Part shown: positions 5,233 through 37,727 of the stretch, in pieces | Layout: each line of letters opens with the position of its first letter | Position numbering within the stretch: the first letter of the stretch is position 1 | NCBI RefSeq assembly: GCF_017355525.1 | Contig: NZ_CP067395.1 | Location: 2,170,001-2,234,000 of the forward strand | DNA: 64,000 nt | Direction of reading: 5' to 3' | DNA from: Lysobacter enzymogenes | GTDB lineage: Bacteria; Pseudomonadota; Gammaproteobacteria; Xanthomonadales; Xanthomonadaceae | Program-made: the position numbers and the translations under genes | Notes under the pieces: model-generated | The model's input: the letters and a program-made list of their open reading frames with translations, nothing else | The model's database searches: none | Told to the model about the DNA's origin: nothing

Positions 5233-5281
5233 GCTGACGCTCCTGCACGAGCCGAAACGGCGAAACCCGGCGCCGCAGCGC

Positions 5282-5839
5282 TCACGGCGCGTACACCGGC
5301 AAGCGGTCTTCCGCCACGTCTTGCAGCAGCGGCGTGGCCTGGTCCTTGGCCGACAGCAGCGGATCGCTCAGCGGCCAGTCGATCGCCAGCGCGGGATCGT
5401 CCCAGCGAATGCCGGCATCGGCCTGGGCGTCGTAGGTGCGGGTGCACAGATACGTGAACACCGCGCGCTCGCTGAGCACGGCGAAACCGTGGGCGAAACC
5501 TTCGGGTATCAGGAAATGGCGCTTGTTCTCGCCGCTGAGCAAGGTCGCGGTCCAACGGCCGAAGTGCGGCGAACCGCGACGGATGTCGACGGCGACGTCG
5601 TAGACCTCGCCTTCCAGCACCGACACCAGCTTGCCCTGCGGATGCGGCCACTGGTAATGCAGGCCGCGCAGCACGCCGCGCGCCGACGAGGACACGTTGC
5701 CCTGGACGAAGCGGTAGTCCAGCCCGGCTTCGGCCAGCCTGTCCTGGTTGAACGACTCGTAGAAATAGCCGCGCGCGTCGCCGAACACGCGCGGCTCCAG
5801 GACCAGGCAGCCGGGCAGTTCGGTTTCGATGATCTTCAT
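5282..5839 (-). CDS. rfbC: dTDP-4-dehydrorhamnose 3,5-epimerase
   Basis: Cupin-fold epimerase for the third step of dTDP-L-rhamnose synthesis. The 185-residue product shows the RGVLRGLHYQ segment with the catalytic His, the PEGFAHGF strand, and a C-terminal DPALAIDWP motif characteristic of RmlC. It sits 25 bases downstream of rfbA and is clearly in the same operon. Confidence 0.96.
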   Translation of the reverse strand: MKIIETELPGCLVLEPRVFGDARGYFYESFNQDRLAEAGLDYRFVQGNVSSSARGVLRGLHYQWPHPQGKLVSVLEGEVYDVAVDIRRGSPHFGRWTATLLSGENKRHFLIPEGFAHGFAVLSERAVFTYLCTRTYDAQADAGIRWDDPALAIDWPLSDPLLSAKDQATPLLQDVAEDRLPVYAP

Positions 5840-5864
5840 GGGGATTCTTTGGCGGTGCGGGCGG

Positions 5865-6749: not shown

Positions 6750-6774
6750 GGGGTGTTCCTGTGCGAGGGGCCGG

Positions 6775-7827
<1,053 letters not shown>

Positions 7828-8401
7828 TCAGGACACTCCTTAAAAAGCTCGCGAGATGGGGGGCCTGATGCCGTCCGCGGCGCCGGCCGCGTTCAGCCCG
7901 GGCCGCCGGCCCCGCCAAAGGCCTGATTGTAAAGCCTTCCGCCGCCGCTCCGATGGCCGCCGCGGCCGCGCGGACGGCTTGGCTACAGCTTGTGTGATCC
8001 GGCACTGCGCAAGCGGGCGCGCGGTCGTACTGGAACTGTGCGCGCCGTAAGCCCCTGCGCCGCAGGCGCCGACGCGGCCCTGCCGCGGTCCCGCCTCCGC
8101 TCCCCATCGGGCTGGCGGAGGCGGCGAAGGCATCCTCGCGCTGGTGCGGGATCGGCCTGTGGCCGCAGGATGCGGAGCGTCTCGCTAGTCCGGATCGGAC
8201 AGACCAGGGCGCCCCCCCATACGCCAAATTCGGAACGATGACGGGGCCCCGCTGCCGAGGTGCCGGGACGAAAGCGCCGGCCGGGCCGAAACGGCCGACG
8301 GCGCGGACTGCCGCAGCGACCGCCGCGCGAGGCTGTGCGCAAGAGCGGGTAAACCGCCGGTCTGTTCGCGGCGCGGAGCGCGGTGGACACTGCGTGGCAT
8401 C

Positions 8402-8517
8402 GGGTTTCGGCGCGATCGGCAGACTCGCGGTCGCGGCTCGCGCCGCTCCTACAGGGGGCCCATGTAGGAGCGGCGCGAGCCGCGACCGCGCCAATACGAC
8501 TACAACGCGACCACCCC
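8402..8517. repeat. REP-like element with perfect 28-bp inverted repeat
   Basis: Arms at 8426-8453 and 8463-8490 are perfectly complementary over 28 bp and separated by a 9-base loop (GGGGGCCCA). The outer parts read GGTTTCGGCGCGATCGG on the left and CCAATACGACTACAACGCGACCACCCC on the right. The core TGTAGGAGCGGCGCGAGCC is of the kind seen many times in Lysobacter and Xanthomonas intergenic DNA (from memory). A degenerate copy is at 1853-1952. Confidence 0.8.
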
Positions 8518-8537
8518 ACCCCCACCTCAGTACCGCT

Positions 8538-8550
8538 GGATAACGTTGTC
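8538..8550 (+). promoter_or_regulatory. LacI-family operator-like site 1
   Basis: GGATAACGTTGTC, centred on AACGTT. It is the exact reverse complement of bases 8705-8717. Near-palindromes with this core resemble operators of LacI-family sugar regulators. No LacI-type gene is in the window. Confidence 0.4.
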
Positions 8551-8704
8551 TTGCAACACCGGTCGCCGCGAACGGATTTGCGCGACGCATCCAGGACGCT
8601 GCGCCGTCGCGAGTGCCCTCGCCATCGAACGCCGGAGCGCTCGCATCACGCCGCGCACCAGGCAATCCGCGATTGCGTGACCGGCGACCGCCGCCGCATC
8701 GGAT

Positions 8705-8717
8705 GACAACGTTATCC
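8705..8717 (-). promoter_or_regulatory. LacI-family operator-like site 2
   Basis: GACAACGTTATCC, the perfect inverse of site 1, with centres about 167 bp apart. It ends 114 bases before the start of the secreted protein at 8832, a sensible place for an operator of that gene. The pair could allow looping. Confidence 0.4.
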
Positions 8718-8831
8718 CGCACTTCGCACCGGCAATGCCGGTGCTAGGTTCGCCGCTGCCGCGCGCGTCCATGCCGACGCATCGCAGCGTGCGCCGCCGC
8801 ACCCGTCCCGTCATCGCACAGGAGACCTCCC

Positions 8832-9590
8832 ATGCCCAAGCTCTGCCCGCCCGCCCTGCTCGCCGCCTGCCTGCTCGCCGCGCCGGCCGCGCAGGCGGTC
8901 GTCGTCGGCGGCATCGTCAGCACCGATGCGCGCTGGCCGGCCGCCAGCGCCGGCTACGACCGCATGACCTTCTACGATCAGGTCGACCGCGACGGCGGCG
9001 CGCGTTCGAACTACTACTGGGCCAACCAGTTCTGGTTCGTCGGCGGCGACGGCGGCTACATCGGCCTGCAGAACCGCAGCGGCCAGCATTGGCTGAATTT
9101 CTCGATCTGGCTCGCCAGCGGCTGGGATCCGGCCAGCCGCGCCGCCTGCAACCACTTCTCGCACGAAGGCAGCGGCGTGCAATGCCAGCTCCAGTGGGAC
9201 TGGAAGCCCGGGCACAAGTACAAGGTCGATCTGGTGCGCGCGTCCAATCGCGTCACCGGCACCGTCACCGACCTGATGAGCGGCGACAGCGTCGCGGTCG
9301 CCACCATCCTCATTCCCACGGCATGGGCCGGCTTCAAGAACGCCGCCGTCAGCTTCGTCGAAGAATTCAGCCAGGGCAGCGGACAACTGGCCTCGTGCAG
9401 CGCGATCGGCGCGCAGTCGTCGGTGTTCTACCGCCCGGTCGCGAACGGCAACCTGCCGGCCGCCAGCCACACCACCCGCACCTACGGCAACTGCAACGAC
9501 CGCAACATCGCCCACGCCGCCTGCGACGCCGACGGCAAGTGCATCAACCTGGTCAGCGACCTCGGCGGCTATCCCTCGCCGGCTGAATGA
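8832..9590 (+). CDS. Secreted protein of unknown function (DUF3472-like pattern)
   Basis: A 252-residue product with a clear signal peptide (hydrophobic LLAACLLAAPAAQA, cleavage near residue 22). A strong ribosome site (AGGAG) lies 8 bases before the ATG. The mature part is rich in Trp, Tyr, Gly and Asn, with YYWANQFWFVGGDGGYIGLQ at about residues 58-77. That pattern resembles the lectin-like DUF3472 domain, but I cannot confirm it. Cysteines cluster in the second half (NCNDRN, ACDADGKC) and may form disulfides. It stands alone, downstream of two LacI-type operator-like sites, which hints at sugar-linked control. No enzymatic motif was recognised. Confidence 0.75.
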   Translation: MPKLCPPALLAACLLAAPAAQAVVVGGIVSTDARWPAASAGYDRMTFYDQVDRDGGARSNYYWANQFWFVGGDGGYIGLQNRSGQHWLNFSIWLASGWDPASRAACNHFSHEGSGVQCQLQWDWKPGHKYKVDLVRASNRVTGTVTDLMSGDSVAVATILIPTAWAGFKNAAVSFVEEFSQGSGQLASCSAIGAQSSVFYRPVANGNLPAASHTTRTYGNCNDRNIAHAACDADGKCINLVSDLGGYPSPAE

Positions 9591-9892
9591 ATGAGCGAAC
9601 GTGAGCGATGCGCAGCGCCGCATCGCTGCTCCGCACGGCTCGCATACGGGCCCGCCGCGAGGCGGTCCCGCGCGTTCGCGCGGCCGCGCGTCGCGGTCTC
9701 ATGACGGTCGCGTTACCACGCATCGGCGCCGTGCGTGTCCCCTTCGGGTTCGTGACGCCGTTATCCGTAGTCGCCATACCAGCGGCGTAAGCTGCGCCGC
9801 ATCTCGCGCCCGCAACGGGCGCCGGCCAGCGAACGGGCGATGGCCGCCCACGCCCCGTTCGCTGCGTTAGGGATTAAGCAGGGGCTGATGTC
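9591..9892. other. Intergenic region before the sigma-54 activator
   Basis: About 300 bases with no convincing gene. A hairpin (AGCGATGCG / CGCATCGCT, 9604-9627) just after the secreted protein may end its transcript. No clear -35/-10 pair for the activator could be identified. Confidence 0.5.
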
Positions 9893-11047
<1,155 letters not shown>

Positions 11048-11155
11048 ACGCGCCGGCGGGCGCGCTTCGAACCGCAGCGCTTCGAACCGCAACGCCTCGA
11101 GCCTCACCGACCGGACCGCGCATCGCGAACCGCGCGCAGCGGGATCGGTCGCGCC

Positions 11156-11187
11156 CGCGCAGGCGTATACGCGTATACGCCTGCGCG
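11156..11187. promoter_or_regulatory. 32-bp perfect palindrome, candidate enhancer site for the sigma-54 activator
   Basis: Half-site CGCGCAGGCGTATACG followed by its exact reverse complement, so the centre holds two tandem copies of GCGTATAC. It ends 159 bases before the sigma-54 promoter, within the usual range for upstream activating sequences of enhancer-binding proteins. It lacks a T tract, so it is a poor intrinsic terminator for the activator gene. The palindrome is seen directly; its role as activator binding site is inference. Confidence 0.6.
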
Positions 11188-11346
11188 AATGCAAGCGCAT
11201 GCGCGCATCCGCCGACCCGCCCCTGCGTCTTCGCGCACCCACCCGGCGCGCGCGGCCGGGTGCGCCGCGACCCGGCCCAAGCCGGCCGCGAGCACGCAAG
11301 CCGTTGATTCGCCGGGCGCGCTCGCCGGCGGCCCGCGCCGAAAAAG

Positions 11347-11363
11347 TTGGCACGCCGATTGCG
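11347..11363 (+). promoter_or_regulatory. Sigma-54 promoter of the contractile injection system operon
   Basis: TTGGCACG-CCGA-TTGCG matches the -24/-12 consensus (YTGGCACG-N4-TTGCW) at every core base. The invariant GG (11349-11350) and GC (11361-11362) are separated by exactly 10 bases. A transcript would begin near 11374, leaving a leader of about 34 bases before the ATG at 11408. Confidence 0.88.
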
Positions 11364-11407
11364 AAGTGTTGGGAACGGACTCTGCGCGAGCGAAAGGAAT
11401 GCTGGCC

Positions 11408-11683
11408 ATGACGACACCCGCAAGCGTCGGCGACGACCGCGAAGTCGAAAGCGCGGTGCTCGCCTATCTCGACCGGCATCCCGGCGCGTCGGACACGCTC
11501 GACGGCATCGCCCAATGGTGGCTGCCGCGCCAGCGTTACGTCACCGCGCGCGCGCGCATCCACGGCGTGCTGTCGCGTCTGGTCGCCGACGGCGTGCTGC
11601 AACTGCGCCAGCTTCCCGACGGCACCGCGCTGTACGCGCTCGACGCGGCGCGCCGCCGCGCGCCGCGCTCCCCGGCTTCCTGA
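11408..11683 (+). CDS. Small winged-helix-like protein, first gene of the eCIS operon
   Basis: A 91-residue product starting at ATG 11408 behind GAAAGGAA. Its pattern (helix, then a YVTARARIHGVLSRLVADGVLQL segment with a beta hairpin ending in GTALYAL) looks like a small winged helix-turn-helix domain. The C-terminus is basic (ARRRAPRSP). It is the first gene after the sigma-54 promoter and ends 47 bases before the sheath gene. It could be a regulator of the operon or a small assembly factor. No closer family was recognised. Confidence 0.75.
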   Translation: MTTPASVGDDREVESAVLAYLDRHPGASDTLDGIAQWWLPRQRYVTARARIHGVLSRLVADGVLQLRQLPDGTALYALDAARRRAPRSPAS

Positions 11684-11730: not shown

Positions 11731-13641
11731 ATGCCAGCTGCGCTCACCTACCCGGGCGTGTACGTCGAGGAAATCCCCAGCGGCGTGCGCACCATCACCG
11801 GCGTCGCCACCTCGATCACCGCCTTCGTCGGCCGCGCGCTGCGCGGGCCGGTCAACCAGGCCGTGGTCGTCAACAGCTTCGGCGATTTCGAACGCCGCTA
11901 CGGCGGCCTGTGGCTGCGCAGCCAGCTCGGCTACGCGGTGCGCGACTTCTTCCTCAACGGCGGCAGCCAGGCGATCATCGTGCGCCTGTACGCGCCCGGC
12001 TACGCCGACGACGCCTCGCGCGAAACCGCCGAGGCCGCCGCGGCCGCGGTCGCCGCCGCCACCGACGGCGCCGATGTCGCCGCCGCGGCCAAGGCCGCCA
12101 AGGACAAGGCCGCGACCTACCTGGAAGAACCGGCCAAGAGCGCCGCCGCCGCGGTCGCCCAGGCCGCCGACGCGGCCTCCAAGCTGGCCGGCGCGAAAGT
12201 CAAGGACGTCGCCGATGCGGCCAAGGCCGCCGCCGCGCCCTCGCGCGCGCCGCTGACCATCGGCGATCTCAAGCTGCAAGCCGCCTACGAAGGCCGTTGG
12301 GGCGGCAAGCTGCGCGGCGAGGTCAGCAAATCCGGCACCGCCGAAATCGCCCTCGCGCTCGGCGTGAACCAGAGCGACCTGTTCAACCTCAGCGTGCGCG
12401 ACACCTCGCCCGGCGGTTCCAGCGAGACCTATCTCAACCTCACCACGGTCGAGAGCCCGCGCCGGGTCGACCGCATCCTCGCCGCCGAATCGGCGCTGGT
12501 GCGCACCGTCGGCTCGCTGCCGGCCAGCGTCAGCGCCGCCAGCGACGCGGTCACCGCCGCGCAAGGCGCGGTCGACGACGCGCAGGCCGCGCTCGACCAG
12601 AAGATCAAGGCCGGCGCGCCGGATTCGGAACTCGACCCGCTCAAGGCCGCGCTGAAGACCGCGCGCGACGCGCGCGACGCCAAAGCCGCGCAGGCCGACG
12701 CCTCGGCCAGCGACGGCGGCGACCTCAACGCGCAGAGCTTCCTGCCCGACAACGGCCTGGCGCTCAAGCTCGGCCTGTACGCGCTGGAGCAGGCCGACCT
12801 GTTCAACCTGCTGTGCATCCCGCCGTACAAGACCGACGACGGCGCGGCCTACGACGCCGAGCCGATCGTGCTCGCCGCCGCGACCGCCTACTGCGAACGT
12901 CGCCGCGCGTTCCACCTGATCGATCCGCCGAGCAGCTGGAAGGACAAGGACACCGCCAAGGCCAAGTTCGACGAATTCGCCGACCCCAAGAGCCGCAACG
13001 CCGCGCTGTTCTTCCCGCGCCTGCGCCAGCCCAACCTGCTGCGCAACAACGCGCCGGAGAACTTCGCGCCGGGCGGCGCCGTCGCCGGCGTGTTCGCGCG
13101 CACCGACACCAATCGCGGCGTGTGGAAAGCCCCGGCCGGTCTCGACGCCGGCCTGGTCGGCGTGCCGCAGCTGTCGGTGCCGCTGACCGACGCCGAGAAC
13201 GGCGAGCTCAACCCGCTCGGCATCAACTGCCTGCGCGCGATGCCGGTCAGCGGCCGCGTGGTGTGGGGCTCGCGCACCTTGCGCGGCGCCGACCAACTGG
13301 CCGACGAGTACAAGTACATCCCGGTCCGCCGCACCGCGCTGTTCATCGAGGAAAGCCTGTTCCGCGGGCTCAAGTGGGTGGTGTTCGAACCCAACGACGA
13401 GCCGCTGTGGGCGCAGATCCGCCTCAACGTCGGCGCGTTCATGCACAACCTGTTCCGCCAGGGCGCGTTCCAGGGCAGCTCGCCGCGCGATGCCTACTTC
13501 GTGCGCTGCGACAAGGACACCACCACCCAGAACGACATCAACCTCGGCGTGGTCAACGTCGTGGTCGGCTTCGCGCCGCTGAAACCGGCCGAATTCGTGG
13601 TCCTGCGCCTGCAGCAGATCGCCGGCCAGATCGACGTCTGA
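11731..13641 (+). CDS. Contractile sheath protein (eCIS, phage tail sheath family)
   Basis: Polymerises around the inner tube and contracts to drive it into a target. The 636-residue product starts at ATG 11731 behind AAGGAG. The N-terminus YPGVYVEEIPSGVRTITGVATS is the classic sheath opening. The C-terminal half holds NPLGINCLR and VVWGSRTL, and near the end a QNDINLGVVNVVVGFAPLKPAEF block, all sheath hallmarks. Unusual are an Ala/Lys-rich helical insert at about residues 90-175 and a second Ala-rich, coiled-coil-like stretch near 265-330; both would sit in the surface-exposed variable domain. Only one sheath gene is present, whereas Afp and PVC loci have several. Confidence 0.96.
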   Translation: MPAALTYPGVYVEEIPSGVRTITGVATSITAFVGRALRGPVNQAVVVNSFGDFERRYGGLWLRSQLGYAVRDFFLNGGSQAIIVRLYAPGYADDASRETAEAAAAAVAAATDGADVAAAAKAAKDKAATYLEEPAKSAAAAVAQAADAASKLAGAKVKDVADAAKAAAAPSRAPLTIGDLKLQAAYEGRWGGKLRGEVSKSGTAEIALALGVNQSDLFNLSVRDTSPGGSSETYLNLTTVESPRRVDRILAAESALVRTVGSLPASVSAASDAVTAAQGAVDDAQAALDQKIKAGAPDSELDPLKAALKTARDARDAKAAQADASASDGGDLNAQSFLPDNGLALKLGLYALEQADLFNLLCIPPYKTDDGAAYDAEPIVLAAATAYCERRRAFHLIDPPSSWKDKDTAKAKFDEFADPKSRNAALFFPRLRQPNLLRNNAPENFAPGGAVAGVFARTDTNRGVWKAPAGLDAGLVGVPQLSVPLTDAENGELNPLGINCLRAMPVSGRVVWGSRTLRGADQLADEYKYIPVRRTALFIEESLFRGLKWVVFEPNDEPLWAQIRLNVGAFMHNLFRQGAFQGSSPRDAYFVRCDKDTTTQNDINLGVVNVVVGFAPLKPAEFVVLRLQQIAGQIDV

Positions 13642-15000: not shown

Positions 15001-15812
15001 GCGACTTCCTGCGCCATCTGGTCGAACGCGCGCGCGGCCAGCTGCCGAGCCTGCAGCGGCGGCGGCCGGGGCTATTCGAAACCCGCGATGCGCTGGTCGC
15101 CGAAACGCCCGCGCTGGACGAAACGCCGCCGGCGCGCGCGCCGGCGCCGCCTGCCACCGGCGCGCCGCCGCAAGCGGCGCCGCAAGTCGTGCGCGAACGC
15201 GCCGAGGCCGCACCCATGCCGGTGCCCGCACCGGCGCCGACTGCGCCGCGCGCGGCCGCGATCGCGCCACAGGAACCGGCGCCGCTGCCGATGCCGGCTG
15301 CGCTGAAGCCGGCCAGCGCGCCGCCGCTGCCGCCAGTGCGCGCGCACCGCGAACAAGCGCCGGCGTCGCAGCCGACGCCGCAGCGTTCGGCCGCATCCGC
15401 CACGCCCGCGGCGCCGGCCGCAGCGCCGACGCCGCCGGCGCGCGCGCCCGAATCCGGCATCGCCAGCGTGCGCACGCACCTGCGCGAAACCCTGCGCATC
15501 GAAACGCGGCACGCGCCCGCCGCGCCCGCGCGCACCGACGCCGCCGCCGGCGCGCGCCCGGGCCTGCCCGCGCCGCAGCCGCTGCAAACCCGCGCCCGCG
15601 CCGCCGCGCCGGTCGCCCATCCCGCGCGCCGCGGCCTCGCGCCGGCGAAAGCGCCGGCCGCGCCGGCGCCCGCGCCGGTGCAGGTCAGCATCGGCCGCAT
15701 CGACATCCGCGCCAGCGCGGCGCCCGCGGCCAAACCCGCGCGCGCGCAGGCCCACAACCCCGCGCCGACGCTCGACGACTACCTGCGCCGCCGTCATGGA
15801 GATCAGCGATGA
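14997..15812 (+). CDS. Pro/Ala-rich eCIS linker protein with conserved C-terminal motif
   Basis: A 271-residue protein translationally coupled to the genes on both sides by ATGA overlaps. Residues about 1-30 form an amphipathic start (MSDFLRHLVERARGQ). The next 200 residues are low-complexity Pro/Ala. Near the end is VQVSIGRIDIRA followed by a short tail ending LDDYLRRR. Proteins with this VxIGRIxVRA signature recur in eCIS loci (from memory), but I know of no established function. The architecture suggests an extended tether with a binding motif at each end. Base composition is extremely G+C-rich. Confidence 0.75.
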   Translation: MSDFLRHLVERARGQLPSLQRRRPGLFETRDALVAETPALDETPPARAPAPPATGAPPQAAPQVVRERAEAAPMPVPAPAPTAPRAAAIAPQEPAPLPMPAALKPASAPPLPPVRAHREQAPASQPTPQRSAASATPAAPAAAPTPPARAPESGIASVRTHLRETLRIETRHAPAAPARTDAAAGARPGLPAPQPLQTRARAAAPVAHPARRGLAPAKAPAAPAPAPVQVSIGRIDIRASAAPAAKPARAQAHNPAPTLDDYLRRRHGDQR

Positions 15813-17098
15813 GCAACGCCCTGGCCATCGCCGCGGTCACCGCTTCGCTGAAGGATCTGATCAGCGACAGCCTGATCGGCCTGGATCTTTCCTCGATCGG
15901 CAGCGTCGCGGTCAGCGCGCTGTCGCCCGACCGCATCCTCACCGGCGAGAACGAGCCCAACCAGCTCAACCTGTTCCTGTATCAGGTCAGCCCCAACATC
16001 GGCTGGCGCAACGCCGCCCTGCCCTCGCGCGACGGCGCCAGCCAGCGCCTGAGCAATCCGCCGCTGGCGCTGGACCTGCACTATCTGCTCAGCGCCTACG
16101 GCAACCAGGACCTCAGCGCCGACGCGTTGCTCGGCCTGGGCATGCAGGCGCTGCACGAGACGCCGGCGCTGGACCGCGAGCGCCTGCGCTCGGTGCTGGG
16201 CCCGCCGACGCCGCCGTTCGGCAATTTCTCCGCGCTCAGCCTCGCCGACCAGGTCGAGTGGCTGAAGATCGCGCCGCAGTTCCTGACCCTGGAAGAACTG
16301 TCGAAGCTGTGGACCGCGGCGCAGGCGCGCTGCCGCCCGTCGATGGCGTATCAGGTGTCGGTGGTGCTGATCCAGGCCGAAGCGGGCACCCGCGGCGCGC
16401 TGCCGGTGCTGCGCCGCGGCCCCGGCGACCGCGGCCCGGTCGCGACCGCGGGCGCGGCGCCGCAACTCGACCGGGTGCGCAACGCCGCGTCCGAATTCCT
16501 GCGCGCCGCGCGCCTCGGCGATCGCCTGCTGCTGGAAGGCCGCGGCCTGCAAGTCGCCGGCAGCGAAGCGGTGTTCGAACACGCGCGCACCCATGCGCAG
16601 CGCAGCCTGCCGGTGCAGGCCGGCGACACGCCGCAGCAATTGCAGGTGACCCTGCCGGCCGCCGGCGACGCCGGCGCGCTGGCCGATTGGACGCCCGGCC
16701 TCTACACCGTGCGCGTGCGCACCGTCCGTCCCGACCTGCCGGCGCTGACCAGCGCGCCGCTGGCCTTGATGCTGGCGCCGCTGCTGAGCGTGGATCCGCT
16801 GGCCGCGGCCGCCGGCGCGGACCTGCCGCTGAGCGTGGAATGCCGCCCGCGCCTGCACCCGGACCAGCACGCCGGCGTGCGCCTGCGCTTCGGCGCCAAC
16901 GAACTGCCGGCCGACGCCATCGTCACGCCCGCCGATCCGGCCCAGCCGAGCACGCTGCAGGCGACCGTGCCGGCGGCGCTGGTCGCGGCCGGCCGCTATC
17001 CGGTCGTGCTCAGCGTCGACGGCGCCGACAGCGTGCCGGCGGTGCAGGCCGCCGACGGCGCGCAGTTCGATCCGCAACAGACCGTGGTCGTCAGCTGA
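15809..17098 (+). CDS. DUF4255 eCIS tail-terminator/cap protein (Afp16/Pvc16-like)
   Basis: Predicted to cap the distal end of the sheath-tube, as Afp16/Pvc16 do. The 429-residue product opens with a helical DUF4255 domain (about residues 1-185): SNALAIAAVTASLKDLI, later PNQLNLFLYQVSPNIGWRN and DLHYLLSAYG, all typical. The remaining 240 residues are beta-rich and Ig/IPT-like. Such an extension is common in family members but its role is unknown. The start overlaps the previous stop (ATGA). Confidence 0.9.
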   Translation: MSNALAIAAVTASLKDLISDSLIGLDLSSIGSVAVSALSPDRILTGENEPNQLNLFLYQVSPNIGWRNAALPSRDGASQRLSNPPLALDLHYLLSAYGNQDLSADALLGLGMQALHETPALDRERLRSVLGPPTPPFGNFSALSLADQVEWLKIAPQFLTLEELSKLWTAAQARCRPSMAYQVSVVLIQAEAGTRGALPVLRRGPGDRGPVATAGAAPQLDRVRNAASEFLRAARLGDRLLLEGRGLQVAGSEAVFEHARTHAQRSLPVQAGDTPQQLQVTLPAAGDAGALADWTPGLYTVRVRTVRPDLPALTSAPLALMLAPLLSVDPLAAAAGADLPLSVECRPRLHPDQHAGVRLRFGANELPADAIVTPADPAQPSTLQATVPAALVAAGRYPVVLSVDGADSVPAVQAADGAQFDPQQTVVVS

Positions 17099-17107: not shown

Positions 17108-19246
17108 ATGAATCCGAACGTTTCCGCCGCGACCGCCGCCTGGAACGCCGCCGACAGCGACGGCGAGGCCTGGAGCGAACGCAACAACCGCTACCTCGCC
17201 GTCTCGCTCGACTGGCTGCGCCTGCGCCTGGACCACCTGCGCGAACAGAACCAGGCCGCGGCCGCGACGCCGGCCGCCGCGCCGGCGCGCGCGCCGTGGT
17301 GGGGCCGCGCCGACGGCGCGCCGGCGCTGCCGCCGCCGTCGTCGCTGGCGCAGCGTCTGCGCGAGGCCGAACAAGAACGCGAACGCGCCGCCGTGGCCGA
17401 ACCGGCGCCGGCGCTGCCGGCATTGGCGCGGCGGCTGGGCCTCAACGATTTCGAGCGCGACATCGTGCTGCTGTGCGCGGCGGCGGAACTCGACCCGGCG
17501 CTGCCGGCCGCGATCGCCGCCGCGCATCCGATCGCCCACGCCGGCGGCTCCGCCCATCCCAGTTTCGGCCTGGCCCTGCGCCTGTTCGACGACCCGGCCT
17601 GGGACGCGCTGTCGCCGCACCGGCCGCTGCGCCATCTGCGCCTGCTCGAGATCAACCAGCCCGGCGCGACCGCGCTGACCGCCGCAGCGCTGCGCATCGA
17701 CGAGCGCATCCTCGGCGCGCTCAAGGGCCTGGACGAGATCGACGAACGCCTCAGCCCGCTGCTCGCCGGACCCGAGCCGGAACGGCCGCTCGGCGCCGCG
17801 CAACAAGCGTGCGCCGAGGAAATCCTGGCCTACGCGCAGGCGCGCGAAGCCGCCGACGCGCCGGCGGTCGTGCAACTGCTCGGCCGCGACCGCGGCGATC
17901 GCCTCGCGGTCGCCGCTCACGCGTGCGCGCGCCTGTCGCTGGCCTTGTACCGCATCGCCGCGGACGCGCTGCCGTCGCAGCGCGCCGAGGTCGACGCGCT
18001 GGCGCGGCTGTGGCGGCGCGAGGCGCAACTGTTGCCGGTGGCCTTGTACATCGAAGCCGACGAGGCCGACGCCGGCGGCGAGCGCGCCGCGGCGCTGGCC
18101 GCGCTGCTGGCGCAGGCGCCGGGGCTGGCCTTCGTCGGCCTGCGCGACACCGCGCTGCCGTTGGCCGAAGCCTCGTGGAGCCTGGACGTGCCGCCGCCGA
18201 GCGCGCTGGAACAACAACGCGCGTGGCGCGAAGCCTTGCCGCCGCAGCTGCGCGAGGACGAGCGCGAACGCCAGGCCGACCGTCTGTCCGGCCATTTCCA
18301 GCTCGACCTGGCCCAGATCGCCGACACCGCGCGCGAAGCCCGCGCGCGCGGCGTCGACGCCTGGGACGCCTGCCGCGAACGCTGCTCGGCGCGGCTGGAA
18401 TCGCTGGCCCAGAGGCTGCAGCCGAAGGCGCGCTGGGACGACCTGGTGCTCGGCGAGGAAAGCACCGGCCTGCTGCGCCAGATCGCCGCGCAGGCGCATC
18501 ACCGCCACCGCGTCTACCAGCACTGGGGCTATGCGCGAAGGCTCAACCGCGGCATGGGCATCAGCGCGCTGTTCGCCGGCGAAAGCGGCACCGGCAAGAC
18601 CATGGCCGCCGAAGTCATCGCCAACGAACTGCGCCTGCACCTGTTCCGCATCGACCTGTCGTCGGTGGTCAGCAAGTACATCGGCGAAACCGAGAAGAAC
18701 CTGCGCCGGGTGTTCGACGCCGCCGAGCGCGGCGGCGCGCTGCTGTTCTTCGACGAGGCCGACGCGCTGTTCGGCAAGCGCAGCGAGGTCAAGGACAGCC
18801 ACGACCGCTACGCCAACATCGAGATCAACTACCTGCTGCAACGCATGGAGGCGTTCTCGGGGCTGGCGATCCTGGCCACCAACATGAAGGCCTCGCTCGA
18901 CGCCGCGTTCCTGCGCCGGCTGCGCTTCGTCGTCAATTTCCAGTTCCCCGGGCCGCAGGAACGCGAGCGCATGTGGCGCCAGGCCTTCCCCGCGGAAGTG
19001 CCGCTGGCGCCGCTCGACTACGCCTGGCTCGCGCGCTTCAACCTGTCCGGCGGCAACATCCACAGCGTCGCGCTGAACGCCGCGTTCGCGGCCGCCGCGG
19101 CCGACGGCGCGGTCGACATGGCGCGCTTGTCGGCGATGGTGCGCGCGGAACTGCGCAAGCTCGGCAAGCCGGTCAACGAGGCCGAGTTCCGCATGCCGCG
19201 CGCGCAGGACGCCGGCGCGCAGGCCGGCGCGGGGGCCGCGCCATGA
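17108..19246 (+). CDS. AAA+ ATPase of the eCIS (Afp15/Pvc15-like)
   Basis: ATPase present in nearly all eCIS loci, thought to act in assembly or cargo loading. The 712-residue product has an N-terminal helical region and a classic AAA domain at about residues 455-680: Walker A GESGTGKT (491-498), Walker B ALLFFDEAD (about 545), then ILATNMK and the arginine-finger region AFLRRLRF. The N-terminal half is degenerate at an AAA-like position (no Walker A). Residues about 40-70 carry an Ala-rich linker. It starts 9 bases after the DUF4255 gene and ends overlapping the next gene. Confidence 0.94.
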   Translation: MNPNVSAATAAWNAADSDGEAWSERNNRYLAVSLDWLRLRLDHLREQNQAAAATPAAAPARAPWWGRADGAPALPPPSSLAQRLREAEQERERAAVAEPAPALPALARRLGLNDFERDIVLLCAAAELDPALPAAIAAAHPIAHAGGSAHPSFGLALRLFDDPAWDALSPHRPLRHLRLLEINQPGATALTAAALRIDERILGALKGLDEIDERLSPLLAGPEPERPLGAAQQACAEEILAYAQAREAADAPAVVQLLGRDRGDRLAVAAHACARLSLALYRIAADALPSQRAEVDALARLWRREAQLLPVALYIEADEADAGGERAAALAALLAQAPGLAFVGLRDTALPLAEASWSLDVPPPSALEQQRAWREALPPQLREDERERQADRLSGHFQLDLAQIADTAREARARGVDAWDACRERCSARLESLAQRLQPKARWDDLVLGEESTGLLRQIAAQAHHRHRVYQHWGYARRLNRGMGISALFAGESGTGKTMAAEVIANELRLHLFRIDLSSVVSKYIGETEKNLRRVFDAAERGGALLFFDEADALFGKRSEVKDSHDRYANIEINYLLQRMEAFSGLAILATNMKASLDAAFLRRLRFVVNFQFPGPQERERMWRQAFPAEVPLAPLDYAWLARFNLSGGNIHSVALNAAFAAAAADGAVDMARLSAMVRAELRKLGKPVNEAEFRMPRAQDAGAQAGAGAAP

Positions 19247-24403: not shown

Positions 24404-24428
24404 ATCCGACTTGCAGAGACCCGCGACC

Positions 24429-25082
24429 ATGAGCGCGCCCCCCAACGCACCCAAGCTGATCAAAGGCGGACTGGCCCTGCTGGACCCGCTGGCCGGCAGC
24501 GTGCTGCGCATCATCGCCTTGCAATACAACCCCGACACGCTCAGCCGCACGCTGCAGGTCAAGGGCGTGGGCGGCGAGGCCGGCGAACGCAGCGAAGCGC
24601 TGCGGTTCAAGGGGCCGGCAGTGGAGACGATCAAGCTCGAAGCCGAGATCGACGCCACCGACGCGCTCGCCGCCGGCACCGAGCCGGCGATCAGCGTCGG
24701 CCTGCATCCGGATCTGGCCACGCTGGAAGCGCTGGTGCAGCCGACCAGCGCCGCGCTGATCGCCGCCAACGGCATCGCCGCCGGCGGTTCGCTGGAGATC
24801 GCTCCCGCGATGGCGCCGCTGGCGGTGTTCGTGTTCGGCCCGCAGCGCATCGTGCCGGTGCGGGTCACCGAACTGAGCATCACCGAGGAGGCCTTCGACA
24901 CCCAGCTCAATCCGATCCGGGCCAAGGTCAATCTCGGCCTGCGCGTGCTCAGCGTCGACGACCTGGGCTTCGACAGCCGCGGCGGCGGCCTGTTCGTGGG
25001 TTACCTGCAAGCGCGCGAGCGCCTGGCCGCGCGCGCGGTCGGCGGCGATTTCCGCACGCTCGGCATTTCCGGAATCGGTTGA
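24429..25082 (+). CDS. eCIS tube-baseplate adaptor (Afp7/Pvc7 N-terminal, gp53-like)
   Basis: A 217-residue protein matching the pattern of the N-terminal domain of Afp7/Pvc7. IIALQYNPDTLSRTLQVKG near the start (residues 28-46) is the signature 'NP..L' segment. LKFKGP-type LRFKGPAVETIKLEAEIDATD follows, and VPVRVTELSITEEAFDTQLNPIRAKV is near the C-terminus. The family joins the tube to the baseplate. ATG 24429 is chosen over an upstream TTG at 24411. In Afp/PVC this domain is fused to LysM; here the LysM-like part is the next gene. Confidence 0.85.
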   Translation: MSAPPNAPKLIKGGLALLDPLAGSVLRIIALQYNPDTLSRTLQVKGVGGEAGERSEALRFKGPAVETIKLEAEIDATDALAAGTEPAISVGLHPDLATLEALVQPTSAALIAANGIAAGGSLEIAPAMAPLAVFVFGPQRIVPVRVTELSITEEAFDTQLNPIRAKVNLGLRVLSVDDLGFDSRGGGLFVGYLQARERLAARAVGGDFRTLGISGIG

Positions 25083-25091
25083 GGAACGATC

Positions 25092-25415
25092 ATGGCCAAC
25101 TACGACTTTCCGCCCGGCAGCCGCTACTACGACATCGCCGTCGCGCAGTTGCCGCAGCCCGACGGCGGCGCGCTGCCGTACCTGCGCCGGCGTTTCCTGC
25201 CGGCGGCCGACGCGCTGGCGACGCTGGCCCGGCGCCGGGTCGTCGAGGGCGACCGCCCCGACCTGATCGCCGCGCGCGAACTCGGCGACGCCGAAGCGTT
25301 CTGGCGCCTGTGCGACGCCAACGCGACGATGCATCCCGACGAGCTGACCGCCGAGCCCGGCGCGATCGTGCGCATCGCCCTGCCCGACGGCGTGCCGCCT
25401 CCGGCGCGGGAGTGA
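25092..25415 (+). CDS. Small LysM-like / tail protein X-like eCIS baseplate protein
   Basis: A 107-residue product located between the gp53-like adaptor and the hub, where phage tail protein X or a LysM domain normally sits. SRYYDIAVAQL, a YLRRRFLP motif and a C-terminal GDAEAFWRLCDANATMHPDEL with GAIVRIALPDG resemble the LysM-like fold ('D...W.IADAN..L.P..L..G..L.IP'). It starts 9 bases after the previous gene. Probably clamps the hub to the tube base. Confidence 0.8.
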   Translation: MANYDFPPGSRYYDIAVAQLPQPDGGALPYLRRRFLPAADALATLARRRVVEGDRPDLIAARELGDAEAFWRLCDANATMHPDELTAEPGAIVRIALPDGVPPPARE

Positions 25416-25418
25416 TCC

Positions 25419-26546
25419 GTGGTCACCGGCATCCATCTCACCGTGATGATCGGCCCGGCGGTGCCCGCGCCGGCGCCGCAGGTGGTGATCGACGCGCTGC
25501 AAAGCGTGGAAGTGACCAGCGGGCGCGACAAGAGCGGGTTCCAGCTGACCTTCAGCGTCGGCAAGCTGTCGCCTTTGCTGACCACGCTGCTGCCGGCGGG
25601 CTACTTCGATCCGCTGGTCACGCGGGTCATCGTCGCCGTCACCCTCGGCGGGCTGCCGCACGTGCTGATGGACGGCATCGTCACCCGCCAGGACCTCGCG
25701 CCGAGCAGCGAGCCGGGGCAGTCGACGCTGACCATCACCGGCGAAGACCTCAGCGCGGCGATGGACCTGATCGAACTGGCGATCCCCTATCCGAACATGT
25801 CCGACACCGTGCAGGCCTATCTGGTGCTGGCGCGCTACGCGATGTTCGGGGTGACGCCGATCGTGATTCCGGGCTTCATCCCGGAGCAGCCGATCATGAC
25901 CGAGAAGATCGAATCGCAGAACGGCACCGACCTGTCGCACCTGCGCCGCATCGCCGAAGCCAACGGCTTCGTGTTCTACGTCGATCCCGGCCCGCTGCCG
26001 GGCCAGAGCATCGCCTACCTCGGCCCCGACATCCGCATCCCGGTGCCGCAGCCGGCGCTGAGCGTGAACATGGACGCCGACACCAACGTCGAATCGCTGA
26101 GCTTCGGCCTGGACGGGCTGGCCAAGGAAACCTTGCTGGTCACGGTCAACGACCCGGTCACCGGGCGCATTCCGATCCCGATCCCGATTCCCGCGATCAG
26201 CGTGTTCCAGCCGCCGCTCGGCGCGCGGCCGACGCCGCCGCTGAAGATGGTGCTGTCGCGCGACACCGGCGGCGACTCGGTGCCGTACACGATCAAGAAG
26301 ATGCTCGGCCGGCTGCTGAAGGGCTCGGCCAACGCGATCACCGCGACCGGCTCGCTCGACGTGCTGCGCTACGGCCACGTGCTGCGCTCGCGCATGCTGG
26401 TCGGCGTGCGCGGCGCCGGGCTGGCCTACGACGGCATGTACTACGTCGACAGCGTCACCCACTCGCTCAAGCGCGGCGAATACAAGCAGAGCTTCCAACT
26501 CAGCCGCGACGGATTGATTTCGCTGACGCCGAAGGTGCCGATATGA
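25419..26546 (+). CDS. eCIS central hub protein (gp27-like, phage late control D family)
   Basis: A 375-residue protein starting with GTG 25419. Hub features: VEVTSGRDKSGFQLTFSVGK near the start, LTITGEDLSAAMDL in the middle, and HLRRIAEANGFVFYVDPG (about residues 169-186), which is typical of gp27/VgrG N-terminal domains. The C-terminal MYYVDSVTHSLKRGEYKQSFQLSRDG is also characteristic. It forms the trimeric ring on which the spike sits. In Afp8/Pvc8 the hub and spike are one polypeptide; here they are two genes, joined by an ATGA overlap. Confidence 0.9.
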   Translation: MVTGIHLTVMIGPAVPAPAPQVVIDALQSVEVTSGRDKSGFQLTFSVGKLSPLLTTLLPAGYFDPLVTRVIVAVTLGGLPHVLMDGIVTRQDLAPSSEPGQSTLTITGEDLSAAMDLIELAIPYPNMSDTVQAYLVLARYAMFGVTPIVIPGFIPEQPIMTEKIESQNGTDLSHLRRIAEANGFVFYVDPGPLPGQSIAYLGPDIRIPVPQPALSVNMDADTNVESLSFGLDGLAKETLLVTVNDPVTGRIPIPIPIPAISVFQPPLGARPTPPLKMVLSRDTGGDSVPYTIKKMLGRLLKGSANAITATGSLDVLRYGHVLRSRMLVGVRGAGLAYDGMYYVDSVTHSLKRGEYKQSFQLSRDGLISLTPKVPI

Positions 26547-27082
26547 GCAACGCCTCGCGCAACGGGCAGTTTCCCGGCCTCTACCGCGGCACGGTGACCT
26601 TGAACACCGACCCGGAATTCCGCGGCCGCCTGCTGCTGATGATTCCCGACGTGACCACCTTCGTGCCCTCGACCTGGGCCGAACCGTGCACGCCGCTGGC
26701 CGGGCCGACCGGCCCCGGCATGGGCGTATACATGGTGCCCACGGTCGGCGCCGCGGTGTGGGTCATGTTCGAACACGGCGACGTCAACAAGCCGGTGTGG
26801 ATGGGCTGCCGCTTCGACACCCAGGCCGATGCGCCGTCGATGTCCAAGCTCAGCAATCCGCTCGACCCCAGCATCATCATTTCGACCGTGCTGCAGAACC
26901 AGTTGATCATCAGCGACCTGCCGCCGACGCCGCTGACCGGCGGCATCGTGCTGCAGACCACCACCGGCGCGATGCTCGTGGTCAACGACAGCGGCATCTA
27001 CATCGACAACGGCAAGGGCGCGTCGATCTGGCTGGTCGGGCCGACCATCACCTTCAACAAGACCGCCATGGCCATCACCTGA
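26543..27082 (+). CDS. eCIS spike protein (gp5/gpV-like OB-fold)
   Basis: A 179-residue spike subunit. GLYRGTVTLNTDPEFRGRLLLMIPDV (residues 10-35) opens the OB-fold as in gpV/VgrG. PTVGAAVWVMFEHGDVNKPVWMGC is the diagnostic 'P.vG..V.V.FE.GD...P.W.G' motif. The rest is short and beta-rich, without the long triple-stranded needle of phage spikes. It is coupled to the hub gene by overlapping stop and start. Confidence 0.92.
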   Translation: MSNASRNGQFPGLYRGTVTLNTDPEFRGRLLLMIPDVTTFVPSTWAEPCTPLAGPTGPGMGVYMVPTVGAAVWVMFEHGDVNKPVWMGCRFDTQADAPSMSKLSNPLDPSIIISTVLQNQLIISDLPPTPLTGGIVLQTTTGAMLVVNDSGIYIDNGKGASIWLVGPTITFNKTAMAIT

Positions 27083-27092
27083 GGACGCCGCG

Positions 27093-27458
27093 ATGCCCGG
27101 ATTCCTGCTTCACGTCAACGCCGCGCTGACCTGCCAGCACGCGGCCGGCCAGGCCAAGATCGCGCCGACGCAGACGCGCGTGCTGGTGTCGGCGCAACCG
27201 GTGGCGACGATTCCGCCCGGCGCGCCGACCATCAGCGTGATGGGCTGTCCTTTCACCTTGCCCAACGGCAAGCCGCAGCCGTGCGTGACGATCAAATGGG
27301 CGATGCCGTCGGCGCGCGTGACGATCATGGGCTTGCCGGCGATGGTGGTGCCGCCGCCGGGGCCCGGGCCCGGCCCCGGCATCTGCCAGAGCGCCGAACA
27401 GATTCCGCAGGGCGCGCCGATCGTCGGCGCCGTGCAGACCCGCGTATTGGCGACGTGA
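27093..27458 (+). CDS. eCIS spike-tip protein (PAAR-like)
   Basis: A 121-residue protein immediately after the spike gene, in the place of Afp10/Pvc10. It has CQHAAGQAKIAPTQTRVLVSAQPV near the start, the cysteines GCPF and QPCVTIKW in the middle, and the Pro/Gly segment PPPGPGPGPG. The pattern of short strands with Cys and His is compatible with a metal-bound PAAR-type cone that sharpens the spike. It also resembles DUF4280-type PAAR-like proteins. Confidence 0.8.
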   Translation: MPGFLLHVNAALTCQHAAGQAKIAPTQTRVLVSAQPVATIPPGAPTISVMGCPFTLPNGKPQPCVTIKWAMPSARVTIMGLPAMVVPPPGPGPGPGICQSAEQIPQGAPIVGAVQTRVLAT

Positions 27459-27496
27459 GCGCAGCGCCCAGCACACCGAGCTTAGGAGCCCACGCC

Positions 27497-27853
27497 ATGC
27501 ATCTCGACTTCCCCTTCCGCATCGACGGCCGCGGCCGCAGCGCGCAGACCGACCACGCCGGCTACGTGCGCGACCTGATCGAACAACTGGTGTTCACCCA
27601 ACCCGGCGAACGGGTCAACCGCCCCGACTTCGGCAGCGGCCTGATGCAGCTGGTGTTCGCCGGCAACAGCCCCGAGCTGGCCGCGACCGTGCAGTTCACC
27701 CTGCAAGCGGCGCTGCAACGCTGGCTGTCGGACCTGATCGAAGTGCGCGAGCTGCGCGTCGACAGCGACGACGCCACCCTCACCGTCAGCCTCAGCTACC
27801 TGCTGCTGCGCACCCGCGAGCAGGTCGACGCCCGCTTCGTCCGCCCCATCTGA
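27497..27853 (+). CDS. eCIS baseplate wedge protein (gp25/GPW family)
   Basis: A 118-residue gp25-like protein. Start ATG 27497 is preceded by TTAGGAG. Motifs: DFPFRIDGRGR at the N-terminus, then HAGYVRDLIEQLVFTQPGERVNRPDFGSGL, which is the hallmark of gp25/Afp9 (the 'PGER...P.FGSGL' block). It initiates sheath assembly at the baseplate. There are 38 bases between the PAAR gene and this one. Confidence 0.95.
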   Translation: MHLDFPFRIDGRGRSAQTDHAGYVRDLIEQLVFTQPGERVNRPDFGSGLMQLVFAGNSPELAATVQFTLQAALQRWLSDLIEVRELRVDSDDATLTVSLSYLLLRTREQVDARFVRPI

Positions 27854-36125: not shown

Positions 36126-37727
36126 ATGAAAGGCGACTTCTCGCGGGTGAGCTTCGACCCCCGCAACCATTTCAGCCAGGTGCTGCTGCAACAGGGCCGG
36201 GTCACCCTGGACGCGGATCCGAACGAGCAGGGCGCGATCCTGCTGCACTACCTGCGCACGCTCGCGCGCGACCTGTTCGGGCCGTACGCCGCGCCGGTCG
36301 ACAACGCCGGCTTCGACCTGCAGCTCGACGGCGACGACGGCGCGCTGAGCCTGCGCATCGGCGCCGGCCGCTACTACGTGCAGGGCATCCTGTGCGAGAA
36401 CGAAGGCTGCGACTACACCGCCCAGCCGCACTTCCGCCCGCAGCCGCAGGGCAAGGAGCAAGGCTCCGGCGACCCGCTGCGGCGCTGGCTGGAATCGTCG
36501 AACCGCGACGACGACACGCGCTTCTGGATTTACCTCAAGGTGTGGGAGCGCCACCTCACCAGCGTGGAATGGCCGCAACTGCGCGAGGTCGCGCTCGGCG
36601 GCCCCGACACCTGCAGCCGCGCCCAGGTGGTGTGGCAGGTGCGCGCGCTGGCGCTCGACGAGATCGAAAGCGCGCTGAAGGATCGCTACGAAGCGACCAA
36701 AGCGCGCCTCGGCACGACCCAGGACGACGCCGAACGCGCGCGCTTGCAGGCGCGCCTGGACGATCTGCAAGAGCGCATCTCGCAATTGAACGAGGACTAC
36801 CGCCAGTCCTGCGCGGTGCCGCTGGCGCTGTTCGACCGCGACCTGCCGACCCTGGCCGCGCAGCTGCGCCCGGCCGAGCGCCTCGACGACCCGTGCATCG
36901 TCAGCCCCGACGCCGAGTACCGCGGCGCCGAGAACCAGCTGTACCGGGTCGAGATCCACCGCGGCAACGAGGACGGCGGCACCGCCACGTTCAAATGGTC
37001 GCGCGACAACGGCAGCGTGCTGACCCGCTGGATCGGCGGCGGCGGCAGCCGTCTGGAAGTGGCCAACCCGCGCGACTTCCGCGACGCGCAATGGATCGAA
37101 CTCAGCGACGAGGACGACGACCTGCTCGGCGAGCCCGGCAGCCTGTGCCGCATCGCCAGCGTCGAAGGCAACGTGCTGATCCTCACCGCCGAACAGGACC
37201 GCCTGCCCGGCCCGACCAGCAAGCTGCGGCGCTGGGACCAGAGCGCGAACGGCGACGTGCGCCTGAAGGACGGCGCGGTGCCGGTGGTCGACAAGAACGG
37301 CGACTACGCCTGGATCGACCTGGAAGACGGCGTGCAGGTGCGCTTCGCCGCCGACGGCGAATACCGCAGCGGCGATTACTGGCTGATCCCGGCGCGCACC
37401 ACCGGCAAGATCGACTGGCCGCTCGATTCCACCGGCAACGCGGCCTACCAGCCGCCGCGCGGCGCCGACCCACAATACGCGCCGCTGGGTTTCATCGGCG
37501 CCAATTCCGACGGCAACCCGAGCGCGGAAACGCCGTGCCGCTGCTTCGTCCATCCGACCAGCACCTGCGGGATCCTGCAAGGGCGGGTGCGCGAAGATGG
37601 CGACCGGGTGGTGGCGAAGCCGCAGGCGCTCGACACCCAGGCGGCGACCAAGGCGGTCGCCAAGGTCGCGCGTACGACCAAGAGCACGAGCAAAGACGCT
37701 GCGGGCAAAGGCGGCAAGGACGTCTGA
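36126..37727 (+). CDS. DUF6519 protein, last gene of the eCIS operon
   Basis: A 533-residue protein starting behind GAAAGGACACAGAC. The opening MKGDFSRVSFDPRNHFSQVLLQQGRVTLDADPNEQ is the signature of DUF6519, seen in several eCIS clusters. Later come FKWSRDNGSVLTRW and DWVEL-like AQWIELSDEDDDLLGEPG, then ADGEYRSGDYWLIPARTTGKIDWP. The C-terminal 40 residues are Lys/Thr/Ser-rich (TTKSTSKDAAGKGGKDV). The family's function is unknown; position after the tail protein suggests an external fibre or receptor-binding component. Confidence 0.85.
   Translation: MKGDFSRVSFDPRNHFSQVLLQQGRVTLDADPNEQGAILLHYLRTLARDLFGPYAAPVDNAGFDLQLDGDDGALSLRIGAGRYYVQGILCENEGCDYTAQPHFRPQPQGKEQGSGDPLRRWLESSNRDDDTRFWIYLKVWERHLTSVEWPQLREVALGGPDTCSRAQVVWQVRALALDEIESALKDRYEATKARLGTTQDDAERARLQARLDDLQERISQLNEDYRQSCAVPLALFDRDLPTLAAQLRPAERLDDPCIVSPDAEYRGAENQLYRVEIHRGNEDGGTATFKWSRDNGSVLTRWIGGGGSRLEVANPRDFRDAQWIELSDEDDDLLGEPGSLCRIASVEGNVLILTAEQDRLPGPTSKLRRWDQSANGDVRLKDGAVPVVDKNGDYAWIDLEDGVQVRFAADGEYRSGDYWLIPARTTGKIDWPLDSTGNAAYQPPRGADPQYAPLGFIGANSDGNPSAETPCRCFVHPTSTCGILQGRVREDGDRVVAKPQALDTQAATKAVAKVARTTKSTSKDAAGKGGKDV

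What the first reader, a model, noticed from the sequence alone, without database searches (positions are those of the whole stretch)
11347..11363. Textbook sigma-54 promoter drives the injection-system operon
TTGGCACG-N4-TTGC with GG and GC exactly 10 bases apart lies 45 bases before the first operon gene, and the gene just upstream is a sigma-54 activator. Sigma-54 control would make the whole 26-kb operon strictly dependent on an ATP-driven activator, giving an off/on switch. I do not know of eCIS operons described as sigma-54 dependent.
Basis: partly seen in the sequence, partly recalled or inferred. Interest (0 to 1): 0.8.

Follow-up and report, generated by a model that had tools for sequence, protein, structure and literature searches.

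The report
Sigma-54 switch for injection-machine operon
The genes for a phage-tail-like injection machine in this bacterium sit behind a special promoter that, by all signs, only a dedicated ATP-driven activator encoded next door can open, and the same starting arrangement is kept in dozens of relatives and in a second kind of injection machine, so its trigger can now be looked for.

Summary
Confirmed, and wider than reported. TTGGCACGCCGATTGC lies at 11347-11362, 45 bases before the first operon gene. The exact core occurs 3 times in the genome (backwards control 4); the other two precede a glutamine synthetase and a Ro60-like gene, homologues of classic sigma-54 targets (recalled). Conservation decides: 35 of 35 loci with the neighbouring activator (bEBP) and the first-gene homologue keep the site within 1 mismatch; five control patterns give 0 of 35. 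Palindromic activator sites, CGGGT-N8-ACCCG, lie upstream in 33 of 35, in steps of about 11 bases. The activator lacks a sensor domain and has a GAFTDA loop. The small winged-helix first gene is the marker: in the order sample all 22 loci holding it have a sigma-54-like site before it; outside the order 10 of 14 do, controls 0 of 14, and there it heads eCIS and T6SS operons alike. Paper searches found no sigma-54-controlled eCIS; T6SS precedents exist. Binding, expression and strict dependence are untested. New variant of a known kind.

The parts
11347..11362 (+). sigma-54 promoter, -24 (TTGGCACG) and -12 (TTGC) elements
   Evidence: read directly; kept in 35 of 35 loci with at most 1 mismatch
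11374..11374 (+). expected transcription start (12 bases after the -12 C); inferred, not mapped
   Evidence: spacing rule recalled; position follows
11257..11274 (+). proximal activator site (UAS) CGGGTGCGCCGCGACCCG, centre 83.5 bases before the first G of GG
   Evidence: at most 1 mismatch in 33 of 35 loci, spacings 6, 7, 9, 10 give 0-1 of 35
11224..11241 (+). probable distal, degenerate activator site TGCGTCTTCGCGCACCCA, 33 bases from the proximal one (3 mismatches to the consensus)
   Evidence: assigned by register with relatives that have a pair 32-33 apart
11297..11309 (-). IHF-like site AATCAACGGCTTG (exact match to WATCAANNNNTTR, consensus recalled)
   Evidence: exact in 3 of 35 loci, at most 1 mismatch in 6 of 35; 300 shuffled patterns mean 0.21, maximum 5 at 1 mismatch; looked for after seeing it in the window
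9893..11047 (+). sigma-54 activator (bEBP) without sensor domain; likely start 9953 or further in; GAFTDA loop; Fis-type HTH
11394..11398 (+). AAGGA, probable ribosome-binding site of the first gene
   Evidence: read directly
11408..11683 (+). first operon gene: 91-aa winged-helix protein of an undescribed family, found behind the promoter in all 35 loci
   Evidence: model pLDDT 80, three helices and a wing; no Pfam or NCBIfam match
11731..13641 (+). contractile sheath protein
   Evidence: PF04984, PF17482
13673..14197 (+). tube protein
   Evidence: PF06841 E=4.6e-47
15809..17098 (+). Pvc16-like protein
   Evidence: PF14065 E=3.9e-47
17108..19246 (+). AAA ATPase of the eCIS
   Evidence: PF00004, PF22977
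19482..23939 (+). eCIS_core-domain protein
   Evidence: PF13699 E=7e-22
24411..27853 (+). stretch from a CIS_tube-like protein (below cut-off) to a gp25-like baseplate protein
   Evidence: PF19266 4e-5, PF04965 5.5e-15
36126..37727 (+). DUF6519 protein, last clear gene of the run
   Evidence: PF20129 E=5.7e-88

Best explanation
11347-11362 is a genuine sigma-54 promoter for the eCIS operon. RpoN-RNA polymerase binds it as a closed complex that cannot open by itself. The sensor-less bEBP encoded at 9893-11047 binds the palindromic sites at 11257-11274 and probably 11224-11241, is looped onto the polymerase, in this lineage with help from IHF at 11297-11309, and opens the promoter by ATP hydrolysis. 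Transcription starts near 11374, reads a small winged-helix protein first and then the injection-machine genes. As the bEBP has no sensor domain, the signal must act on its synthesis, stability or a partner protein; the winged-helix first gene is a candidate feedback regulator. Shown: site, conservation, synteny, UAS pattern and phasing, domain content. Inferred: binding, start point, dependence on RpoN and the bEBP, IHF role, signal route, transcript length.
For: 35 of 35 loci keep the site within 1 mismatch (25 exact), five controls 0 of 35. Independent test outside the order, with loci chosen by the first-gene profile and not by the site: 10 of 14 have a site within 2 mismatches in the 170 bases before the gene, five controls 0 of 14, permuted patterns mean 0.22, maximum 7; within 1 mismatch 5 of 14, permuted mean 0.01, maximum 1. 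UAS within 1 mismatch in 33 of 35, other spacings 0-1. UAS distances cluster at about 49, 60, 71, 83, 93 and 104, with others at 127-130 and 139: period about 11, resultant 0.78 for 47 sites, 0.73 for the 20 distinct distances. The combined UAS plus promoter pattern occurs once in this genome and in 13 of 299 genomes of the order, backwards control 0; 10 of the 13 hold Pvc16_N. Where genes lie between the bEBP and the first gene, 4 of 6 loci have a second UAS plus promoter before the first gene (L007, L009, L014, L048). The other two exact core matches in the genome precede glutamine synthetase and Ro60-like genes. One rpoN. Catalytic motifs intact, TDA of the loop invariant among 12 aligned members.
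Against: No expression data. The loop is GAFTDA or GAYTDA, not GAFTGA; VfmH with GAFTDA did not pull down RpoN (PMC10714721, passage), although both variants are listed among those expected to stay active in Desulfovibrio (PMC4641369, passages). The base after TTGC is G. The window's distal UAS has 3 mismatches; L081 has no UAS within 1 mismatch, L082 none within 2, L091-L093 none within 1 mismatch nearer than about 129 bases. With 2 mismatches allowed the UAS controls also rise, to 31 of 35 for spacing 9. IHF-like sites in 6 of 35 loci only. L125 has bEBP and first gene but no site between them, and L130 only a 3-mismatch one. The loci are related, so 35 is not 35 independent events; the UAS consensus was taken from these same loci.
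Confidence: 0.9

Rival explanations
1. The motif is a real sigma-54 promoter but is worked mainly by another bEBP of the cell, the neighbour having another target.
For: Some relatives keep a sigma-54-like site with the bEBP 20-26 kb away at the other end of the cluster; L065 has a site and no bEBP match at E<=1e-50 within 280 kb.
Against: bEBP, promoter and first gene are kept together in 35 of 35 loci (which were chosen for bEBP and first gene) and the UAS in 33 of 35; the combined pattern is unique in this genome.
Confidence: 0.05
2. The operon is transcribed mainly from an ordinary sigma-70-type or ECF promoter, or by read-through from the bEBP gene; sigma-54 is an accessory input.
For: No intrinsic terminator was found between the bEBP and the operon; consensus scans are poor at finding promoters in G+C-rich DNA; L125 keeps bEBP and first gene without a site.
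Against: No sigma-70-like site from 9590 to 41500; in the 105 columns around the box only the box stands out, apart from one base just after it (1.0 bit), though windows were anchored on the box.
Confidence: 0.08
3. Chance match to a short consensus.
For: Exact matches in the genome are no commoner than the backwards pattern (3 against 4).
Against: 35 of 35 conserved with 0 of 35 in five controls; 10 of 14 against 0 of 14 outside the order.
Confidence: 0.005

Closest known systems
sigma-54/bEBP control of type VI secretion clusters (VasH type; Bernard et al. 2011, seen only as cited in PMC6653060, passages)
   Same: A contractile injection system under a sigma-54 promoter with a bEBP gene in the cluster. 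Three T6SS-type loci in my set carry the same first-gene family (L123, L125, L136), two of them with a bEBP upstream.
   Different: The window's machine is an eCIS; its bEBP has no sensor domain and stands before the promoter, and a winged-helix gene comes first. I did not compare with VasH itself.
Sensor-less bEBPs such as PspF and HrpR/HrpS (recalled)
   Same: AAA+ plus Fis-type HTH only; control must come from a partner or from synthesis.
   Different: Falls short of the PspF model (TIGR02974: 244 bits against a cut-off of 444); GAF/YTDA loop; linked to eCIS; no PspA- or HrpV-like partner was looked for.
Published eCIS regulators: GerE/LuxR-type, BTAD, RfaH (PMC8213781, passages)
   Same: Regulator genes beside eCIS operons.
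   Different: Other classes of regulator; 'sigma' has 0 occurrences in that paper's main text. L046, a same-type eCIS of the order without the first gene, has a receiver-GerE protein (PF00072, PF00196) and a kinase-like gene upstream.

Membership tests
sigma-54 promoter | -24 GG and -12 GC in TGGCAC-N5-TTGC context with fixed spacing | tested here: met
   spacer 3 or 5 controls 0 of 35 within 1 mismatch
sigma-54 promoter | rpoN in the genome | tested here: met
   PF04552 E=4.3e-63, one match
sigma-54 promoter | upstream activator sites, phased on the helix | tested here: met
   (sequence pattern only; binding not tested)
sigma-54 promoter | transcription start about 12 bases after GC and dependence on RpoN | not testable with these tools
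   needs 5' mapping and a deletion strain
bacterial enhancer-binding protein | AAA+ sigma-54 interaction domain with intact Walker motifs | tested here: met
   PF00158 1e-61; GETGTGKE and FLDE invariant in 12 aligned members
bacterial enhancer-binding protein | GAFTGA loop | tested here: inconclusive
   GAFTDA or GAYTDA in window and 23 relatives; papers point both ways
PspF (TIGR02974) | score over the curated cut-off | tested here: not met
   244.2 against 443.55 bits
eCIS | sheath, tube, Pvc16-like, AAA, eCIS_core, gp25 genes in one run | tested here: met
eCIS | released, contractile particle | not testable with these tools
   needs electron microscopy of culture supernatants

The most novel reading that the evidence does not exclude
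A portable start cassette, consisting of a sigma-54 promoter, a small undescribed winged-helix gene read first, and a bEBP at one end of the cluster, heads operons of both eCIS and T6SS in several families of the class and at least one genome of another class. The winged-helix protein would be the partner that reports signal or assembly state to the (often sensor-less) bEBP, a counterpart of PspA or HrpV feedback, so two separately evolved contractile machines would share one ATP-driven on-switch.
Probability: 0.4. Interest if true: 0.85.

Novelty: new variant of a known kind. Interest (0 to 1): 0.68.

Why it matters
What turns eCIS operons on is mostly unknown. A sigma-54 promoter with a dedicated activator makes it a defined genetic question: delete rpoN or the bEBP and measure sheath, or express the bEBP from an inducible promoter and look for particles. 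The same first gene heading T6SS operons elsewhere suggests that one regulatory cassette serves two classes of contractile machine and gives a marker gene to find them. Second promoters in front of the first gene where other genes have been inserted in relatives hint that the activator co-expresses extra genes, possibly cargo.

Tried and rejected
The perfect 32-bp palindrome at 11156-11187 was my first candidate for the activator site; it is absent from 7 comparison sequences (two of them the same locus, L005 and L090) and was dropped in favour of CGGGT-N8-ACCCG. Autoregulation of the bEBP gene: no UAS or sigma-54 site within 1 mismatch in the 350 bases before it in 35 loci, a CRP/Clp site in 1 of 35; rejected. 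Genome-wide count as proof: rejected. In one search the first count gave 31 of 35 because the interval was cut too short in 4 loci; recounted with the first gene's stop codon as anchor (35 of 35). A conclusion that the wiring is confined to this order, drawn from 18 phylum-wide eCIS loci, was given up when first-gene homologues elsewhere turned out to have bEBPs and sites. IHF: 6 of 35 only, kept as a lineage feature. The fold search for the first gene gives a general winged-helix answer: its only two matches at E<=0.001 are O-methyltransferases, then Fur, LmrR and Z-alpha types.

Full report
What is there. TTGGCACGCCGATTGC stands at 11347-11362. Upstream is a bEBP gene, 9893-11047; downstream, on the same strand, a 91-aa gene (11408-11683) and an eCIS run from the sheath (11731) to a DUF6519 gene (ends 37727).

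Is it more than chance? Exact cores are not rarer than the backwards control: 3 against 4 in the genome. All three stand before genes, though: L004 before a glutamine synthetase (PF00120 E=4e-133) and L003 before a Ro60-like gene (PF25045, PF05731); the sigma-54 dependence of glnA and of rsr-rtcBA is recalled. Conservation decides. A scan with the bEBP found 24 related loci; 23 of 24 have a site with 0-1 mismatch 122-555 bases after the bEBP stop. The exception, L025 (Aliidiomarina), has a 42%-identical, different bEBP and no matching eCIS gene. All 23 carry the first-gene homologue and 21 of 23 a sheath match (L010 and L012 have none in the stretch held, that of L024 is broken up). In the genus, 6 of 20 genomes hold the sheath and all 6 have the exact core. 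The site is kept in 35 of 35 within one mismatch, 25 exact; five controls 0 of 35 within one mismatch, 3-15 within two. Nine of the 11 specified columns reach 1.8-2.0 bits and the other two 1.2 and 1.6; flanks stay at 0.6 or less except one base (1.0) just after the box. The windows were anchored on the box, so these figures are partly by construction.

Activator sites. Two copies of CGGGT-N8-ACCCG, 32-33 bases apart, usually lie 70-75 and 102-107 bases before the GG, the distal one often weaker. Some loci are shifted by about one or two helical turns (49, 60, 83, 93); the best of eight periods tried is 11-11.5. The window is one such case: its proximal site is at 83.5 instead of about 73, and its IHF-like site is displaced by the same 10-11 bases relative to L005, L081, L082 and L089, as if one full turn had been inserted between IHF site and promoter. 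Spacing of this kind is what looping by a bound activator would require; the mechanism is inferred.

How common in the order? In 299 genomes, 40 hold Pvc16_N at 44 places; I fetched the other 43. A profile of the first gene finds it in 22 of the 44 loci, and all 22 have a sigma-54-like site before it: 15 within 1 mismatch with the bEBP just upstream (the window, 13 others and the remnant L070); L055 within 1 mismatch, with a sensor-less bEBP after the DUF6519 gene at the far end; L053, L060, L062 and L065 with TGGCAT-N5-TTGC (2 mismatches) 27-28 bases before the start codon; L074 and L077 within 1 mismatch. In L053, L060 and L062 a bEBP stands convergent at the far end (its receiver-like match is below Pfam's cut-off in two and absent in the third). 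L065 has no bEBP match at E<=1e-50 within 280 kb, and none was seen near L077 in the stretch fetched. Three rows of the profile (L053, L060, L074) had been found by looking behind a site, so for these the association is circular; the rest were found by the protein. Of the 22 loci whose sheath is of this type and whose upstream DNA is readable, 19 hold the first gene and a site, and 18 also a bEBP at one end; L046, L047 and L051 lack the first gene and have no site within 1 mismatch near the sheath. L057, L083 and L084 are cut by contig ends and L078 repeats L046. Other loci without the first gene show only scattered 1-mismatch matches (L067, L072, L087, L088).

Outside the order. In a phylum-wide sample, 19 of 398 genomes hold Pvc16_N. 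In 18 further places fetched (about 18 kb upstream only, less in L099, L106 and L110) there is no bEBP match and no first gene; 1-mismatch matches occur in five of them (L097, L102, L104, L110, L111), among them one 232 bases before a tube frame in L111, which by eye seems to lie inside a reading frame. Searching instead for the first gene gave 3 further genomes outside the order in the phylum sample and 12 in the class sample. Fourteen of these 15 loci were examined in full (L123, L125-L137; the 15th, L122, a partial match, was only scanned and has no site within 1 mismatch). They were picked by protein alone. Ten of 14 have a site within 2 mismatches in the 170 bases before the gene, 5 within 1, 1 exact; five controls 0 of 14. 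L123 has TTGGCACACCCCCTGCA about 186 bases before the matched part; L130 has only a 3-mismatch match; L125 and L137 have none. A bEBP lies in the stretch in 10 of 14 (not L132, L133, L136, L137; on the other strand in L126 and L135, and 4.9 kb away in L129). Seven of 14 have an eCIS-type sheath match; three are T6SS clusters with a fused TssB-TssC sheath: L123 and L125 by Pfam and NCBIfam (VipA, VipB, Hcp, TssF), L136 by similarity to these. The other four show no sheath in the stretch held, two of them (L132, L135) on contigs that end just behind the gene.

The activator. It has AAA+ and a Fis-type HTH and no room for a sensor: relatives start at the AAA+ domain. The loop is GAFTDA or GAYTDA. 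PMC4641369 (passages) lists both among variants that should stay active, with target operons for DVU2106 (GAFTDA). PMC10714721 (passage) found no RpoN in a pull-down with a GAFTDA protein and leaves the cause open. The co-occurrence with sigma-54 sites argues that this loop works here. No UAS or sigma-54 site within 1 mismatch precedes the bEBP gene, so its own control lies elsewhere.

The first gene. An undescribed small winged-helix family: AlphaFold model pLDDT 80 with three helices and a wing, 191 proteins at E<=1e-5, no Pfam domain in the 120 listed, a few named by their sources as ArsR, MarR or metal-uptake regulators. Its constant place behind the promoter makes it a candidate regulator; this is inference.

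Extent of control. Terminator scans of the operon are at shuffle level and no sigma-70-like site was found; this neither proves nor excludes internal promoters. The strict off/on claim stays open.

Known context. Sigma-54 control of T6SS is known (PMC6653060, passages). For eCIS, PMC8213781 (passages) names GerE, BTAD and RfaH. Two eCIS reviews have no occurrence of 'sigma' or 'promoter' (PMC12961389, PMC10598620; term searches of the main text). Searches for eCIS or contractile injection with sigma-54, sigma54 or RpoN gave 1, 6 and 8 papers, three of five terms required, listed 15 of 18, none with RpoN. PMC10599522 and PMC11150451 were checked by passages and do not treat the question; PMC6653060 is cited above; the others I judged by title and abstract start. 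Most subscription papers are not held, and no search was made on the first gene in T6SS clusters.

The finding outside the order replaced a narrower conclusion; it raised the odds of the novel reading from 0.3 to 0.4 and the interest from 0.62 to 0.68.

Noticed in passing
L123 (reverse strand) 1390-9990, L125 8150-15737, L136 6450-11712: T6SS clusters with a fused TssB-TssC sheath whose first gene is the same winged-helix family; bEBP upstream in L123 and L125, none in the stretch of L136.
   Followed up: partly
window 11156-11187: Perfect 32-bp palindrome CGCGCAGGCGTATACGCGTATACGCCTGCGCG between bEBP and promoter, not found in 7 comparison sequences. Function unknown.
   Followed up: partly
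L007 9197-10690, L010 13022-14476: Calpain-family protease genes (PF00648) between the sigma-54 promoter after the bEBP and the first eCIS gene in Rhodanobacter; L007 has a second UAS plus promoter before the first gene. Possible cargo under the same activator.
   Followed up: partly
L010 9125-16954: bEBP, UAS, promoter and first gene kept, but no sheath match in the stretch; G259, with the identical UAS stretch, and the similar G242 hold the pattern but no Pvc16_N. Perhaps a remnant or another use of the cassette.
   Followed up: no
L018 7579 (minus strand): A divergent sigma-54 site with a UAS upstream of the bEBP gene in Dyella lutea, facing away from the eCIS.
   Followed up: no
L074 12334-14973: A distant eCIS type in another genome of the genus with a longer bEBP, sigma-54 site and winged-helix first gene in the same order.
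   Followed up: partly
window 11062-11091: Exact tandem repeat of GCGCTTCGAACCGCA just after the bEBP stop.
   Followed up: no
L046 8435-9846: A same-type eCIS of the order with a receiver-GerE protein and a kinase-like gene upstream instead of first gene and bEBP.
   Followed up: partly
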